Part shown: in pieces, positions 5,336 through 56,129 of the stretch
Layout: every line of letters begins with the position of its first letter
How positions within the stretch are numbered: the stretch's first letter is position 1
NCBI GenBank assembly: GCA_963920635.1
Contig: OY987298.1
Span: forward strand, 35,123,787 to 35,187,786
DNA: 64,000 nucleotides
Reading direction: 5' to 3'
Source: Pseudeuparius sepicola
Lineage: Eukaryota; Arthropoda; Insecta; Coleoptera; Anthribidae
Notes under the pieces: generated by a model
What the model was told of the DNA's origin: nothing
What the model saw: the letters and a program-made list of their open reading frames with translations, nothing else
Database searches by the model: none
Position numbers and translations under genes: made by a program

Positions 5336-5372
5336 ATATCAGCAGTGACTATTCTATAGTCACTGATATCAG
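5336..5372. mobile_element. Micro-palindrome element, copy 1 (23 bp) with 7-bp target repeats
   Basis: The core at 5343-5365 is a perfect stem, CAGTGACTA...TAGTCACTG, with a 5-base centre. It is flanked on both sides by the exact heptamer ATATCAG (5336-5342 and 5366-5372). In reverse complement the core matches the 30-bp copies at 27965-27994 and 33980-34009 apart from a 7-base shortening of the centre. It sits in the loop of fold-back B, so it arrived after that element. Function and parent family are unknown. Confidence 0.75.
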
Positions 5373-9888: not shown

Positions 9889-11366
9889 TCCAAAAGATAG
9901 AACCAACAGAAACAACTACTCCGAGGGCTAATACCCCTACCGGCATTGAACTACACCATTGGTTCTTGATTTTCCGTTGAGAATAAACATTGCAGATCAA
10001 AGTTCCCTCCTTCACCAACGTAACATCAAAGATATTGCTATCTTTGTTGGGACATGTCCTGACAATCATGTGCAGGCACAATGATCCCAGCCAGCCCATT
10101 ACCGGTTTCATCCTCTTTGGGAATCATCAGATGGACGTAGGCGAAATCCAGAGTGGATGGATTCAAAAGATAGAACCAACAGAAACAACTACTCCGAGGG
10201 CTAATACCCCTACCGGCATTGAACTACACCATTGGTTCTTGATTTTCCGTTGGGAATAAACATTGCAGATCAAAGTTCCCTCCTTCACCAACGTAACATC
10301 AAAGATATTGCTATCTTTGTTGGGACATGTCCTGAGAATCATCTGCAGGCACAATGATCCCAGCCAGCCCATTACCGGTTTCATCCTCTTTGGGAATCAT
10401 CAGATGGACGTAGGCGAAATCCAGAGTGGATAGATTCAAAAGATAGAACCAACAGAAACAACTACTCCGAGAGCTAATACCCCTACCGGCATTGAACTAC
10501 ATCATTGGTTCTTGATTTTCCGTTGGGAATAAACATTGCAGATCAAAGTTCCCTCCTTCACCAACGTAACATCAAAGATATTGCTATCTTTGTTGGGACA
10601 TGTCCTGACAATCATCTGCAGGCACAATGATCCCAGCCAGCCCATTACCGGTTTCATCCTCTTTGGGAATCATCAGATGGACGTAGGCGAAATCCAGAGT
10701 GGATGGATTCAAAAGATAGAACCAACAGAAACAACTACTCCGAGGGCTAATACCCCTACCGGCATTGAACTACACCATTGGTTCTTGATTTTCCGTTGGG
10801 AATAAACATTGCAGATCAAAGTTCCCTCCTTCGCCAACGTAACATCAAAGATATTGCTATCTTTGTTGGGACATGTCCTGACAATCATCTGCAGGCACAG
10901 TGATCCCAGCCAGCCCATTACCGGTTTCATCCTCTTTGGGAATCATCAGATGGACGTAGGCGAAATCCAGAGTGGATAGATTCAAAAGATAAAACCAACA
11001 GAAACAACTACTCCGAGGGCTAATACCCCTTCCGGCATTGAACTACATCATTGGTTCTTGATTTTCCGTTGGGAATAAACATTGCAGATCAAAGTTCCCT
11101 CCTTCACCAACGTAACATCAAAGATATTGCTATCTTTGTTGGGACATGTCCTGACAATCATCTGCAGGCACAATGATCCCAGCCAACCCATTACCGGTTT
11201 CATCCTCTTTGGGAATCATCAGATGGACGTAGGCGAAATCCAGAGTGGATGGATTCAAAAGATAGAACCAACAGAAACAACTACTCCGAGGGCTAATACC
11301 CCTACCGGCATTGAACTACACCATTGGTTCTTGATTTTCGGTTGGGAATAAACATTGCAGATCAAA
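9889..11366 (+). repeat. 273-bp satellite array, about 5.4 units
   Basis: The landmark CAAAAGATAGAACC recurs at 9891 and 10164, and the ATGCAGATCAAAGTTCCC-type block recurs at 9990, 10263, 10536, 10809 and 11082, giving a constant 273-bp spacing. Units are roughly 97-99% alike. From the second unit onward two variants alternate: GTGGATGG with CTACACCATT, then GTGGATAG with CTACATCATT. This implies a 546-bp dimeric higher-order unit. As 273 is 91 codons, an 89-codon frame with a stop repeats in each unit; I take this as a by-product of periodicity, not a gene. Confidence 0.95.
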
Positions 11367-11435
11367 GTTACGTTGGTGATGGAGGGAACTTTGATCTGCA
11401 ATGTTTATTCCCAACGGAAAATCAAGAACCAATGG
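11367..11435 (-). repeat. Inverted partial satellite unit capping the array
   Basis: These 69 bp are the reverse complement of part of the satellite unit (GTTACGTTGGTGA... through ...AAGAACCAATGG), joined head-on to the last forward unit. The junction is therefore a palindrome with nearly no spacer. After it the sequence is unrelated. Confidence 0.9.
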
Positions 11436-11452
11436 TGATTGATTCAGAACCG

Positions 11453-27957: not shown

Positions 27958-28001
27958 CTGTAACCAGTGACTATAGAACGAATTATAGTCACTGCTGTAA
28001 C
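27958..28001. mobile_element. Micro-palindrome element, copy 2 (30 bp) with 7-bp target repeats
   Basis: The core at 27965-27994 has arms CAGTGACTATA and TATAGTCACTG around GAACGAAT. The heptamer CTGTAAC lies immediately on both sides (27958-27964, 27995-28001). In reverse complement, copy 3 at 33980-34009 is identical except for one loop base. Confidence 0.8.
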
Positions 28002-33972: not shown

Positions 33973-34016
33973 CTACTATCAGTGACTATAATTCTTTCTA
34001 TAGTCACTGCTACTAT
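33973..34016. mobile_element. Micro-palindrome element, copy 3 (30 bp) with 7-bp target repeats
   Basis: The core at 33980-34009 has arms CAGTGACTATA and TATAGTCACTG around ATTCTTTC. The heptamer CTACTAT lies on both sides (33973-33979, 34010-34016). The reverse complement of the loop, GAAAGAAT, differs by one base from the loop of copy 2. Confidence 0.8.
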
Positions 34017-52140: not shown

Positions 52141-53530
52141 ATGCCCGGCAAACGTAGAAAAATCGCTCAAAAATTGTGTAAAATTAAAAAGAAGATAGGA
52201 AAATTTGAGAAGTGGGTTACTGAACTATCCGAAACGAGTAAGTACAAATTAATTAAACAGATATGAGTGTTTTAGGGAAATATATGAAATATTATTTTTA
52301 ATACTTAATTTATCGAGTCTAAATTATATCTATACACATCATTATGTGTATTAGGGCATTCAACAACGAGGCTTAATTATATCTAGCTCGTTAATATTGG
52401 GTTTATAAATACCTTCTATACCTAGGTATACCAAAGAGATATAGATCTTTGTTTTAATGTATTTCTTATACGTAAACGGGACTTTATGATTATACATAAC
52501 TCGTTGGCGTTGTTAACGGAAAAGTTAACCTGGAATGCTATAAATTTCCAGGTGGATCAGAATCCGAGACGTCAAGTTCGGATTCAGAGGCTATTCGGCC
52601 GGCTAATGATCCAGGCCATGCACCCCCAACCTCAGGCGAGGAGGAGGAGGAACAAGTTACCCCGACCAATATAGTTACCACAGCTGAGGTGCACCAACCA
52701 CCAAAATCAGGCTCACAGGTTGATCCGGCAATCTGCCAATTATTGGGGATGAACTATCAACTGGTGACATATTCGGAAACCCGATACATAATGATGTCGT
52801 AACCTGCTGGTCGGCGTATTTGAACAAAGGTCTCGATTCCGAATTAAGAGACACACTTGCTGAGAAGTGGCGAATTCCGCAGAATTCTCCTTTATTATGC
52901 GCCCCGAAGGTTAACACCGAGATCAAGGGGTTATATTCTCCCAGTGAATTGCGCAGGGACACATTCCTGTCAAATATTCAAGAAACGATGGGCAAGAGTT
53001 TGAGTGCATTGGGAAGCATATTAGACCATAATATACTAAATGATAAAATATCATTGGATGCGGAAGTAAAGAAGCAGATTTTGCCTACCATTTCAGAATC
53101 TGCAAAATTAATGTGCGAATCTCATTTTTATTAACACGTCACAGAAAATACGAACTTATGGGACCGATGAATGAAGTAGTTAAGAAAATTGTCGGAGATT
53201 CGATATCTGATACATTTCTATTTGGATTGGAATTTAATGAACAATGCAAGTCGGCACAAGCGGCCCAGAAAGCCTTAAAAGACTTTAAAACACCAACACC
53301 CATGACAACTAAGAAGCCATCGAACCAACCGTTGGCGAGTTATTTAAATTCCAAGCGTCCGTACCGCAAGCCCAAATTCAAGGAACAACCCGAATACAAA
53401 TACAAAACGAGAGGGGGGGAGCTACAGGAACAGCAACATAACATCAACTCGCAGACCGCAGAACAGCACGAACGGGAGGCGGCAGGAATAGAGGTACCAG
53501 TGCAGAATTATAGTAGTAAATATGCAGGTA
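52141..53530 (+). pseudogene. DIRS-like gag with a probable intron, frameshifted
   Basis: ATG at 52141 opens MPGKRRKIAQKLCKIKKK and VTELSET, a basic start. A GTAAGT donor at 52238 and a TTTCCAG acceptor ending at 52551 define a 314-bp intron whose removal restores one frame into SGSESETSSSDSEA and an acidic EEEEE stretch. A one-base loss in the G-run near 52745 shifts frame into GDELSTGDIFG and then the conserved block LRDTLAEKWRIPQNSPLLCA, PKVNTEI, and a helical segment to CESHF. Another shift near 53130 leads to HRKYELMGPMNEVVKKIVGD and a basic tail. It would form the particle structural protein. The gag-pol boundary is not defined by a stop. Confidence 0.75.
52238..52551 (+). other. Probable spliceosomal intron in the DIRS-like gag gene
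   Basis: The donor is GA|GTAAGTA and the acceptor is AAATTTCCAG|GTGG. Exon 1 ends in phase 1 and exon 2 supplies two bases, giving SET-S-GSESET with no stop. Unspliced reading meets a stop about 28 bases into the intron. Confidence 0.65.
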
Positions 53531-55451
53531 GAATTGCCTTATATTATACTAATTGGCTAAGAATCTGTAACGATAAGACAATTCTTAGTTGGGTACAAGG
53601 GTATTCTTTACCATTTAAAAGAAGGCCCAAACAAAAAGACATTAAATCTCAAAAAATTAACAAAACGTACAGAACCAAAATTATTCAGGTTATAAATAGA
53701 TTAGAACAAGTTGGTGCTATAAATTTATGCACTTATAATAAACGTCAGTTTTTGTCTCCATATTTTTTGGTACCAAAACCAAATGGGGATTATCGTTTTG
53801 TTTTAAACTTAAAAAAAATTAAATACCTTTTCGGATAGTTTCCATTTTAAAATGGAAAGTGTAAAATCGGTAAAGACGATTAAATTTTCAGGATGTTACA
53901 TGTGCACTATAGATTTAAAGGATGCATATTTTCTGGTTCCAATATCCAATAAATACAGGAAATAAATACGTTTTTCCTTCGATTCAAAAATTTACGAATT
54001 TACTTGCCTTCCTTTCGGCCTTAGTACAGCCCCATTTGTTTTTTACCAAGATATTTAAACCTGTCTTACATTTCTTGAGAGATCAAGGTATCATGCTAAT
54101 AAATTACTTAGATGATTTGTTAATAATCGGAAAATCTGAATTGGAATGTCGTACAAACTTAAAAATAGTAATTAACTTACTGCAATCCCTTGGTTTCTTA
54201 ATAAATTGTAACAAAAGTTCGCTTGTTCCAAGCCAGTCATGTAGATTCTTAGGGTTCATGTTTAATAGCCGACTCATGACCATAGAGTTGCCACAAGATA
54301 AACAATTAAAAGCTCTTCATAAGGCAAAACGTTTATGTTCTAAACAGTTTTGTACTATTCAACAACTAGCTGAAATTCTAGGATATTTTGTTTCCTTATG
54401 TCAGGCGACAAAATACGGGTGGCTATATACAAAACGATTTGAACGAGCTAAGTATATAGGTTTAAAAAATAACTTTGGCAGTTATCGTGGTCATATAACT
54501 ATAACAAAAGAAATAAAGGAAGATTTAAATTGGTGGACAAATAATATACCCTCAGCCAGTGCAACTCTTAAGGACAAGAACTATGAAATGGAAATCTTTT
54601 CTGATTCATCTAGTTGGGGATGGGGAGCTGTTTGTGGAGATGAAAGAGCACAGGGATTTTGGTCTGCAGATCAAAAAAAGTTACATATAAATTATCTCGA
54701 ACTACTGGCAAGTTTTAATGCACTCAAATGTTTTGCTAAAGACAAAAATCATTATAACATTTTACTGCGCATCGACAACACCACTGCAATTAGTTATATA
54801 AACAGAATGGGGGGTGTAAAATTTAGTAAATTCAATAAAATTTCTAGACACATCTGGCAATGATGTGAAGCTAGAGATCTGTGGATTTTCGCTTCATATA
54901 TTAGCTCCCAAAATAACTTTCAAGCCGATAGGGAATCGCGTCGTAGATATGTCGAAACAGAGTATTCCTTAAATAAGACCGTTTTCAAGACCATAACAGA
55001 GGCATTTGGTAAACCGTCAATTGATATCTTTGCATCCCAATCGAATGCAAAATGTAAAGATTACATTTCGTGGAAAATGGATCCAGACGCGCTTTTTGTA
55101 GACGCTTTCACGGTATCCTGGTCAGGTATATATTTTTACGCATTTCCAACATTTCCGATAATTTTGAAAACCCTGCATAAAATCATATCCGACAAAGCAG
55201 AGGGCATTATAATAGTGCCTGATTGGCGTACCCAACCATGGTATCCAGTCTTCTTAGGTTTACTAAGTTCTACGCCTCTTTATTTTAAACCCAGTCAGAA
55301 TTTAATGTTAGACCCTTTCAGGAATCCACATCCGATCTGGAATCGAATTACCCTGGTTGCCGTGAGATTATCAGGCAAGCATATATGTAAAAAGAGGCGT
55401 CCCTTTATCCGTCATACCAACGTTAATCAGCTCGTTAAGTTTAGCTACGTT
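53520..55451 (+). pseudogene. DIRS-like reverse transcriptase and RNase H, broken
   Basis: Motifs in order: ALYYTNWLRICNDKTILSWV (RT start of the DIRS type), FLSPYFLVPKPNGDYRFVLN, TIDLKDAYFLVPI, FTCLPFGLSTAPFVF, and the catalytic INYLDDLLIIG near 54100. RNase H follows from 54590, with FSDSSSWGWGAV, INYLELLASFNALK and RIDNTTAISYINRMGG (acidic residues D, E, D visible). The C-terminal extension continues with IDIFASQSNAKCKDYISW, DAFTVSW and VVPDWRTQPWYP-like sequence. Frame breaks occur near 53822, 53970 (in-frame stop) and 54050, and a TGA interrupts at 54861. It is a retrotranscription enzyme in the family, inactive here. Confidence 0.9.
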
Positions 55452-56129
55452 AAAGCAATACGATAGCTGTCTTAAGCATTGGTGGACATTTTGCAAAGCA
55501 AATGGACTTGAATGTTTAGATTGCTCTTCGAGATAAGTATTACAATTCTTGCAAAATGAATTTGAAAAAGGATCTAGTTATAATACCTTAAATTCCCACC
55601 GTTCCGCAATAAAATTAATATTATCTGTTGATGAAGACAATACAATTAATAGGTTTTTGAAGAGAGTTTATCGAATAAGACCTACATTTCCTAGGTACCC
55701 CGTTACATGGGATCCGACCCAGGTTTTAGAATATTTAGAAAGTCTTTTTCCATTGGAATCGTTGTCACTCGAAAATTTGTCTTACAAGCTGTAACCTTGT
55801 TAGCCTTAATCTCTGCTCAACGAATTCAAACTCTGAGCAAAATTCAAATTAATAATATAACCAGATCGAATAAAAAAATCGAAATAAGAATAACAGAATT
55901 AATTAAAAATTCAGGCCCTGGAAAATTACAGCCCCTATTAATTGTACCATATTATATAGAAAGACCTGAGGTCTGCGCAGCAAAATGTTTAGATGAGTAT
56001 TTAAGAAGAACGGAAGGAATTAGAGGTGCTACATTCCTTTTATTTTTAACACATAAAAAGCCGCATAAGGCAGCATCCACACAGACTCTTTCTAGGTGGG
56101 TTAAGATATGTGTTGTAATAACTTGTTAA
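55452..56129 (+). pseudogene. DIRS-like tyrosine recombinase, C-terminus missing
   Basis: TLKQYDSCLKHWWTFCKANG opens the core-binding domain, followed by a stop and then YNTLNSHRSAIKLIL and VTWDPTQVLEYLESL. A frameshift near 55785 leads into the catalytic domain VTLLALISAQRIQTLSKIQI (containing the first catalytic Arg), ITELIKNSGPGKLQP, and TQTLSRWVK. Reading then ends at a stop: the H-x-x-R box and nucleophilic Tyr expected in the next 60-100 residues are absent before the internal complementary region. The family enzyme integrates the circular DNA intermediate. This copy cannot be active. Confidence 0.85.

What the first reader, a model, noticed from the sequence alone, without database searches (positions are those of the whole stretch)
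27958..28001. A 30-bp palindromic micro-element present three times, each with its own exact 7-bp flanking direct repeat
Seen directly: cores at 5343-5365, 27965-27994 and 33980-34009 share the stem CAGTGACTAT[A]/[T]ATAGTCACTG. In a common orientation the two 30-bp copies differ by one base, and the 23-bp copy lacks seven central bases. The flanks are ATATCAG, CTGTAAC and CTACTAT, duplicated exactly at each site and different between sites, the usual mark of independent insertions. Known non-autonomous transposons are far longer. Either a 30-bp unit can be moved by a transposase acting on its fused terminal repeats, or a larger CAGTGACTATA element has been excised repeatedly to one uniform remnant. 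I know of no described class this short.
Basis: partly seen in the sequence, partly recalled or inferred. Interest (0 to 1): 0.9.

Follow-up and report, generated by a model that had tools for sequence, protein, structure and literature searches.

The report
Scars left by departed jumping genes
The tiny palindromes look like repair scars left where one family of P-type jumping genes cut itself out of an animal genome, so they are records of past DNA cutting and mending rather than a new miniature transposon.

Summary
In detail: three palindromic cores (23, 30, 30 bp), each with its own exact 7-bp flanking duplication. They are not a uniform micro-element. The window's genome (769 Mb) holds 911 places of the form CAGTGACTATA-N(0-20)-TATAGTCACTG, with 0 for the reversed control. 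By subtraction about 892 are 22-36 bp, against 43 matches of 37-66 bp. Of 62 matches scored, 43 have an exact 7-bp duplication (42 different 7-mers) and one an exact 8-bp duplication. Of the 50 listed cores, 38 read as two trimmed copies of one terminal repeat, arms at most 19 nt, joined tail to tail; shuffles give at most 9. Some longer ones carry filler resembling the flank, the terminal repeat or the TTAGG telomere repeat. This is the anatomy of P-element excision products in Drosophila (PMC2895639). P-superfamily transposases are numerous in this genome, and full-length elements with 7- or 8-bp duplications are present. Best reading: end-joining footprints of a P-superfamily transposon. 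No parent with these ends was found, and most whole-genome searches did not complete, so that part stays open.

The parts
5336..5342 (.). 7-bp target duplication ATATCAG, left copy
5343..5365 (-). 23-bp excision footprint; on the - strand CAGTGACTATAGAA joined to TAGTCACTG (arms 14+9, or 13+10)
5366..5372 (.). 7-bp target duplication ATATCAG, right copy
27958..27964 (.). 7-bp target duplication CTGTAAC, left copy
27965..27994 (+). 30-bp excision footprint CAGTGACTATAGAACGAAT joined to TATAGTCACTG (arms 19+11 or 20+10, one substitution in the long arm)
27995..28001 (.). 7-bp target duplication CTGTAAC, right copy
33973..33979 (.). 7-bp target duplication CTACTAT, left copy
33980..34009 (-). 30-bp excision footprint; on the - strand CAGTGACTATAGAAAGAAT joined to TATAGTCACTG (arms 19+11 or 20+10)
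34010..34016 (.). 7-bp target duplication CTACTAT, right copy

Best explanation
Each palindrome is the end-joining footprint left when a P-superfamily (Galileo-like, 7-bp duplication) cut-and-paste transposon with terminal repeats beginning CAGTGACTATAGAA(G/A)GAA excised. The transposase made a long staggered cut, about 18-19 nt inside each end, so each donor end kept the 7-bp target copy plus a 3' single-stranded tail of terminal repeat. The two tails were trimmed, aligned and joined, sometimes after copying nearby sequence (polymerase-theta-type repair) and sometimes, it seems, with telomere repeats added. Shown here: the flanking duplications, the arm structure and size edge, the filler types, and P transposases in the same genome. 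Inferred: the cut position, the repair pathway and the identity of the parent.
For: (1) 911 places genome-wide, control 0. (2) Flanks of 62 matches: 43 exact 7-bp, 1 exact 8-bp, 10 with 5-6 of 7, 8 none (at least 3 of those 8 are sub-matches inside longer sites). 42 of the 43 7-mers differ. Counted on both strands together, T at position 2 and its mirror A at position 6 stand at 95%. Galileo makes 7- or 8-bp duplications, consensus GTATTAC or GTANTAC (PMC4168063, passages). (3) Size edge: about 892 places of 22-36 bp by subtraction, then 19 of 37-42 and 24 of 43-66 (lengths counted by eye from the listing). (4) The 50 listed cores read as a fusion of two prefixes of the same terminal variant: 14 explained with arms up to 17, 32 with 18, 38 with 19, 38 with 20; shuffled centres give mean 6.2, maximum 9 in 500. 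(5) One-sided trimming with both target copies intact (L102, L103, L105). (6) Filler resembling flank or terminal repeat, e.g. L053 holds a copy of its flank ATGCAAG. (7) Four sites carry GGTTAGG.. filler; contig C3 begins with that telomere repeat. (8) 150 of 150 scored candidates (1302 at first look) match the P-transposase RNase H domain, many in long open frames. One 821-aa frame has five P-transposase/THAP9 domains inside an element with 22-bp repeats and an 8-bp duplication; two more elements have 32-bp repeats and 7-bp duplications. (9) Drosophila P excision gives flank+17+17+flank with the same junction classes (PMC2895639, passages).
Against: No element with CAGTGACTATA ends and a transposase was found: the word CAGTGACTAT is absent from 30 of 30 transposase loci of 3.4 kb and 6 of 6 of 6.5 kb. 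A pattern meant to catch unexcised ends gave 16 places; of the 6 fetched, 4 are footprints with exact duplications, 1 has both arms and a duplication alike at 6 of 7, and 1 has one arm with no partner in the 4 kb read. The terminal sequence used in the arm test was inferred from the footprints themselves. Some sites break the 18-19 limit or need extra bases: L057 keeps 20 nt on both sides around 18 bp, and L100 reads as 20+11. 12 of 50 cores are not explained by simple fusion. P elements cut 17 nt in and give 8 bp, not 18-19 and 7. Of two contig starts read, only C3 shows the telomere repeat; C1 does not. Whether junction filler exceeds chance was not scored.
Confidence: 0.87

Rival explanations
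1. The 22-36 bp unit is itself a mobile micro-element, moved by a P-type transposase acting on its two fused terminal repeats.
For: Most scored sites have an insertion-type duplication and the 7-mers differ. Some cores recur: in 44 sites one 33-bp core occurs 4 times with different flanks, and one 23-bp core 4 times, two of these being a locally duplicated pair (L010 and L011, same flanks). No parent was found.
Against: 31 different cores among 44 sites; junction-like range with an edge at 36 bp; one-sided arm loss and filler. P elements carry internal transposase-binding sites besides the terminal repeats (PMC7776569, figure legend in passages), for which a 30-bp unit has no room; that they are required is recalled.
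Confidence: 0.05
2. Footprints of a cut-and-paste transposon of some other superfamily with a 7-bp duplication and a long stagger.
For: The parent was not seen, so superfamily membership rests on duplication length, target motif, footprint anatomy and the presence of P transposases in the genome.
Against: Duplication length and motif match Galileo, and long 3' tails are a described P feature. Recalled, from no call: Tc1/mariner leaves 2-3 nt, and hAT and Transib leave flank hairpins without terminal-repeat tails.
Confidence: 0.07
3. Chance palindromes, or copies of one larger duplicated repeat.
For: One pair (L010, L011) about 1.5 kb apart has the same flanks and is a local duplication.
Against: 911 against 0 for the control pattern; 42 different 7-mers in 43.
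Confidence: 0.01

Closest known systems
Excision footprints of the Drosophila P element (PMC2895639, passages)
   Same: Target duplication + terminal-repeat tail + terminal-repeat tail + target duplication; trimming, microhomology, templated insertions
   Different: Longest arms here are mostly 18-19 nt instead of 17; 7-bp instead of 8-bp duplication; hundreds of natural sites in one assembly; telomere-like filler at four sites
Galileo (P superfamily, Drosophila; PMC4168063, passages)
   Same: 7-bp (sometimes 8-bp) duplications with T at position 2 and A at position 6
   Different: Galileo copies are long elements with extended terminal repeats; the word footprint does not occur in that paper's main text
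MITEs, including P-MITEs of Anopheles gambiae (PMC1562414, passages)
   Same: Terminal inverted repeats and target duplications without coding capacity
   Different: P-MITEs there have an internal region and 8-bp duplications; these cores are varied junctions with little or no internal sequence
Interstitial telomeric sequences inserted at double-strand breaks (PMC8537989, PMC2246262; search listing and start of abstract only)
   Same: Telomere repeats at a presumed break-repair junction
   Different: Here the break would be a transposon excision site, and about 2-4 units were added

Membership tests
P-superfamily excision footprint | Target duplication of 7-8 bp on both sides | tested here: met
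   43 exact 7-bp and 1 exact 8-bp of 62 matches; 3 of 3 window copies
P-superfamily excision footprint | Two terminal-repeat arms with an upper length set by the staggered cut | tested here: met
   Plateau at 18-19 nt for the 50 listed cores; size edge at 36 bp. End sequence inferred from the same sites; L057 and L100 are exceptions
P-superfamily excision footprint | Microhomology and templated filler at junctions | tested here: inconclusive
   Filler resembling flank or terminal repeat in L045, L047, L053 and other sites; judged by eye, not scored against a null
P-superfamily excision footprint | P-type transposase in the genome | tested here: met
P-superfamily excision footprint | Intact parent with the same ends and a P transposase | tested here: inconclusive
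   Word absent from 30 + 6 transposase loci; none recognised among 6 fetched of 16 candidate ends; most whole-genome searches unanswered
MITE | Many near-identical copies of one internal sequence | tested here: not met
   31 different cores in 44 sites; little or no internal region
MITE | Mobility of the unit itself | not testable with these tools
   No second strain or relative is held

The most novel reading that the evidence does not exclude
A whole P-superfamily family has been purged from this genome almost completely, and is now known mainly from more than 900 excision scars. The scars record a cut 18-19 nt inside the ends, one or two bases further than in Drosophila P, and show telomerase occasionally extending the 3' tails before joining.
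Probability: 0.3. Interest if true: 0.7.

Novelty: new member of a known kind. Interest (0 to 1): 0.5.

Why it matters
As far as I know (recalled), transposon excision scars are mostly studied a few dozen at a time in engineered flies. Here one assembly holds hundreds of natural junctions from what looks like one substrate. They could be used to infer where an unstudied P-type transposase cuts, which repair pathway an animal's germline uses, and how often telomere repeats are captured at breaks. The case also shows that very short palindromes with target duplications need not be mobile.

Tried and rejected
Mobile micro-element: rejected as the main reading because of core diversity, the size edge, filler and one-sided losses.

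A third terminal variant ending GAAAGGT(T): I first took this as an element end. Searching CAGTGACTATAGAAAGGTTAG gave four places, all of them footprints with GGTTAGG filler, and C3 begins with CCTAA repeats. I now read these four as telomere-repeat addition. The shorter GGT/GGTT cases could be that or a sequence variant.

A strict 18-nt cut: one search gave 17, 42, 43 and 43 of 50 for arms up to 17, 18, 19 and 20, with three end variants allowed. One search, with the same variant on both arms and without the GGTT end, gives 14, 32, 38 and 38. Because position 19 appears to be T and the opposite arm often begins with T, 18 and 19 cannot be separated, and 20 with microhomology is not excluded. 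None of the 43 longer cores listed equals a plain 18+19 to 20+20 fusion (forms printed, compared by eye).

The 43 matches are not all clean sites: two overlap each other (C2:33002112 and C2:33002124), and some look like AT-rich chance or nested events.

Viral contigs: no match. Window tRNA and Rfam scans: nothing. Ten paper searches listed no catalogue of natural genome-wide P-type footprints that I recognised. I saw only listings, and passages of five papers, so this is weak evidence of absence.

Not answered despite retries: pattern CCCAGAAAAGG-N(0-30)-CCTTTTCTGGG (footprints of a full-length 7-bp P family, the best positive control), the total count of CAGTGACTATAGAARGAA, and the list of 34-36 bp sites. 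The pattern CAGTGACTATAGAARGAA-N(0-18)-AGTCACTG was sent once, unanswered.

Full report
The three features are as described. At 5343-5365, 27965-27994 and 33980-34009 lie palindromic cores beginning CAGTGACTAT and ending ATAGTCACTG, each between two exact copies of a private 7-mer. The window looks eukaryotic: a reverse transcriptase fragment, many inverted repeats and few long open frames. It lies in a 769-Mb assembly of 16 contigs. Of two contig starts read, C3 begins with CCTAA repeats and C1 does not; TTAGG/CCTAA is the arthropod-type telomere repeat (general knowledge).

Genome-wide, CAGTGACTATA-N(0-20)-TATAGTCACTG occurs at 911 places and the reversed control at 0. Only the first 50 places were listed, all on contig C1; 41 of these 50 were fetched. 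With the window's three they make 44 sites with 31 different cores. Flanks were scored on 62 matches drawn from these, from the longer sites cut and from the GGTTAG sites: 43 have an exact 7-bp duplication, 1 exact 8 bp, 10 match at 5 or 6 of 7, and 8 show none. At least three of those eight (L047, L051, L055) are inner sub-matches of longer sites. Matches with more than two arm motifs were dropped before the count. 42 of the 43 exact 7-mers differ. Counted on both strands together, position 2 is T and, by mirror, position 6 is A in 95%. Galileo, a P-superfamily transposon, gives 7- or 8-bp duplications with consensus GTATTAC or GTANTAC (PMC4168063, passages).

Lengths have an edge. The N(15-44) search found 43 matches of 37-66 bp. 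By eye 19 of these are 37-42 bp and also fall in the first search, so by subtraction about 892 places are 22-36 bp. The 50 listed cores can be read as two prefixes of one terminal repeat joined tail to tail. With the ends CAGTGACTATAGAAGGAATT or CAGTGACTATAGAAAGAATT, the same variant on both sides, 14 of 50 are explained by arms of at most 17 nt, 32 with 18, 38 with 19 and 38 with 20. Shuffling the centres gives a mean of 6.2 and a maximum of 9 in 500 trials, with either variant allowed on each side and arms up to 19. The model ends were inferred from these same sites, so the absolute fit is partly circular. The window's two 30-bp cores are both 19+11 (or 20+10) fusions in opposite orientation, and the 23-bp core is 14+9 or 13+10. 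That explains why the two 30-bp copies look like one element: they share a junction type. Exceptions exist: L057 keeps 20 nt on both sides around 18 bp and could be an internally deleted element or a footprint with filler; L100 reads as 20+11.

Some longer sites carry filler of the kinds made by end joining, judged by eye. L045 holds CTATAGAATT three times in a row; L047 contains a second partial terminal repeat; L053 contains a copy of its own flank ATGCAAG. L058 is two footprints 14 bp apart, each with its own 7-mer. Some sites lost nearly all of one arm while keeping both target copies (L102, L103, L105). Four sites contain GGTTAGG-type filler, about four units in L061, which matches the repeat at the start of C3. 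Telomere repeats at break sites are described in vertebrates (PMC8537989, PMC2246262; listing and start of abstract).

This anatomy has an experimental counterpart. P transposase cuts 17 nt inside each end, leaves 17-nt 3' tails, and its insertions have 8-bp duplications (PMC7776569, passages). Repair in flies gives target copy + tail + tail + target copy with trimming, microhomology and templated insertions, in part dependent on polymerase theta (PMC2895639, passages). The genome here is rich in P-superfamily transposases: the TNP-like RNase H domain gave 1302 first-look candidates, of which 150 were scored and 150 matched, with open frames up to 866 aa; none of the 14 control genomes matched. 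An 821-aa frame in L094 carries the P-element HTH, GTP-binding, both RNase H parts and a THAP9 C-terminal domain; the longest listed frame of L098 is 299 aa with two of these domains, so that copy is not shown to be intact. Of six 6.5-kb stretches, three show clear elements with terminal repeats of 22, 32 and 32 bp and duplications of 8, 7 and 7 bp (L094, L096, L098); a fourth has an 11-bp repeat with an 8-bp duplication; two gave nothing.

What is missing is the parent. The word CAGTGACTAT is absent from 30 of 30 transposase loci of 3.4 kb and from 6 of 6 of 6.5 kb. A pattern chosen to miss ordinary footprints found 16 places. Of 6 fetched, 4 were footprints with exact duplications, 1 had both arms and a duplication alike at 6 of 7, and 1 (L104) has one arm and no partner in the 4 kb read. 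Either the parent is very rare or gone, or its sequence past position 18 differs from what the pattern assumed. The genome search was unanswered most of the time, so this could not be closed.

The palindromes are best explained as excision footprints of a P-superfamily transposon. The kind of thing is known. The scale, the 18-19 nt arms with 7-bp duplications and the telomere-like filler are the parts that may be new, and each has a clear test. On rechecking I lowered the main confidence from 0.88 to 0.87 and raised the other-superfamily rival from 0.06 to 0.07, because of the 20-nt exceptions L057 and L100.

Noticed in passing
L050, L061, L062, L063 (own genome, C1 and C5): Footprints containing GGTTAGG repeats, matching the repeat at the start of contig C3; possible telomerase action on excision breaks.
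   Followed up: partly
G000 C1:12844, C2:26342, C9:23581, C11:20047: P-transposase RNase H matches lie within about 30 kb of the starts of several contigs, perhaps a subtelomeric copy.
   Followed up: no
L094, L096, L098: P-superfamily elements of about 4.6-5.4 kb with perfect terminal repeats and target duplications; L094 has an open 821-aa transposase frame.
   Followed up: partly
window 53047-56126: Reverse transcriptase fragment (Pfam RVT_1) followed by frames that by eye resemble RNase H and a tyrosine recombinase; possibly a DIRS-like retroelement.
   Followed up: no
window 9891-11369: Tandem array of a 273-bp unit, 5.4 copies, 98% matches, with an inverted 71-nt arm at 11367-11437.
   Followed up: no
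L058; G000 C3:53779703-53779767: Two footprint cores only 14 bp apart. In L058 each has its own exact 7-bp duplication, abutting; at the C3 place the outer flanks were not read.
   Followed up: no
L057 (C1:121309088-121309145): 58-bp element with 20-nt arms on both sides, 18 bp between them and a GTGGTAG duplication; could be an internally deleted copy of the parent.
   Followed up: no
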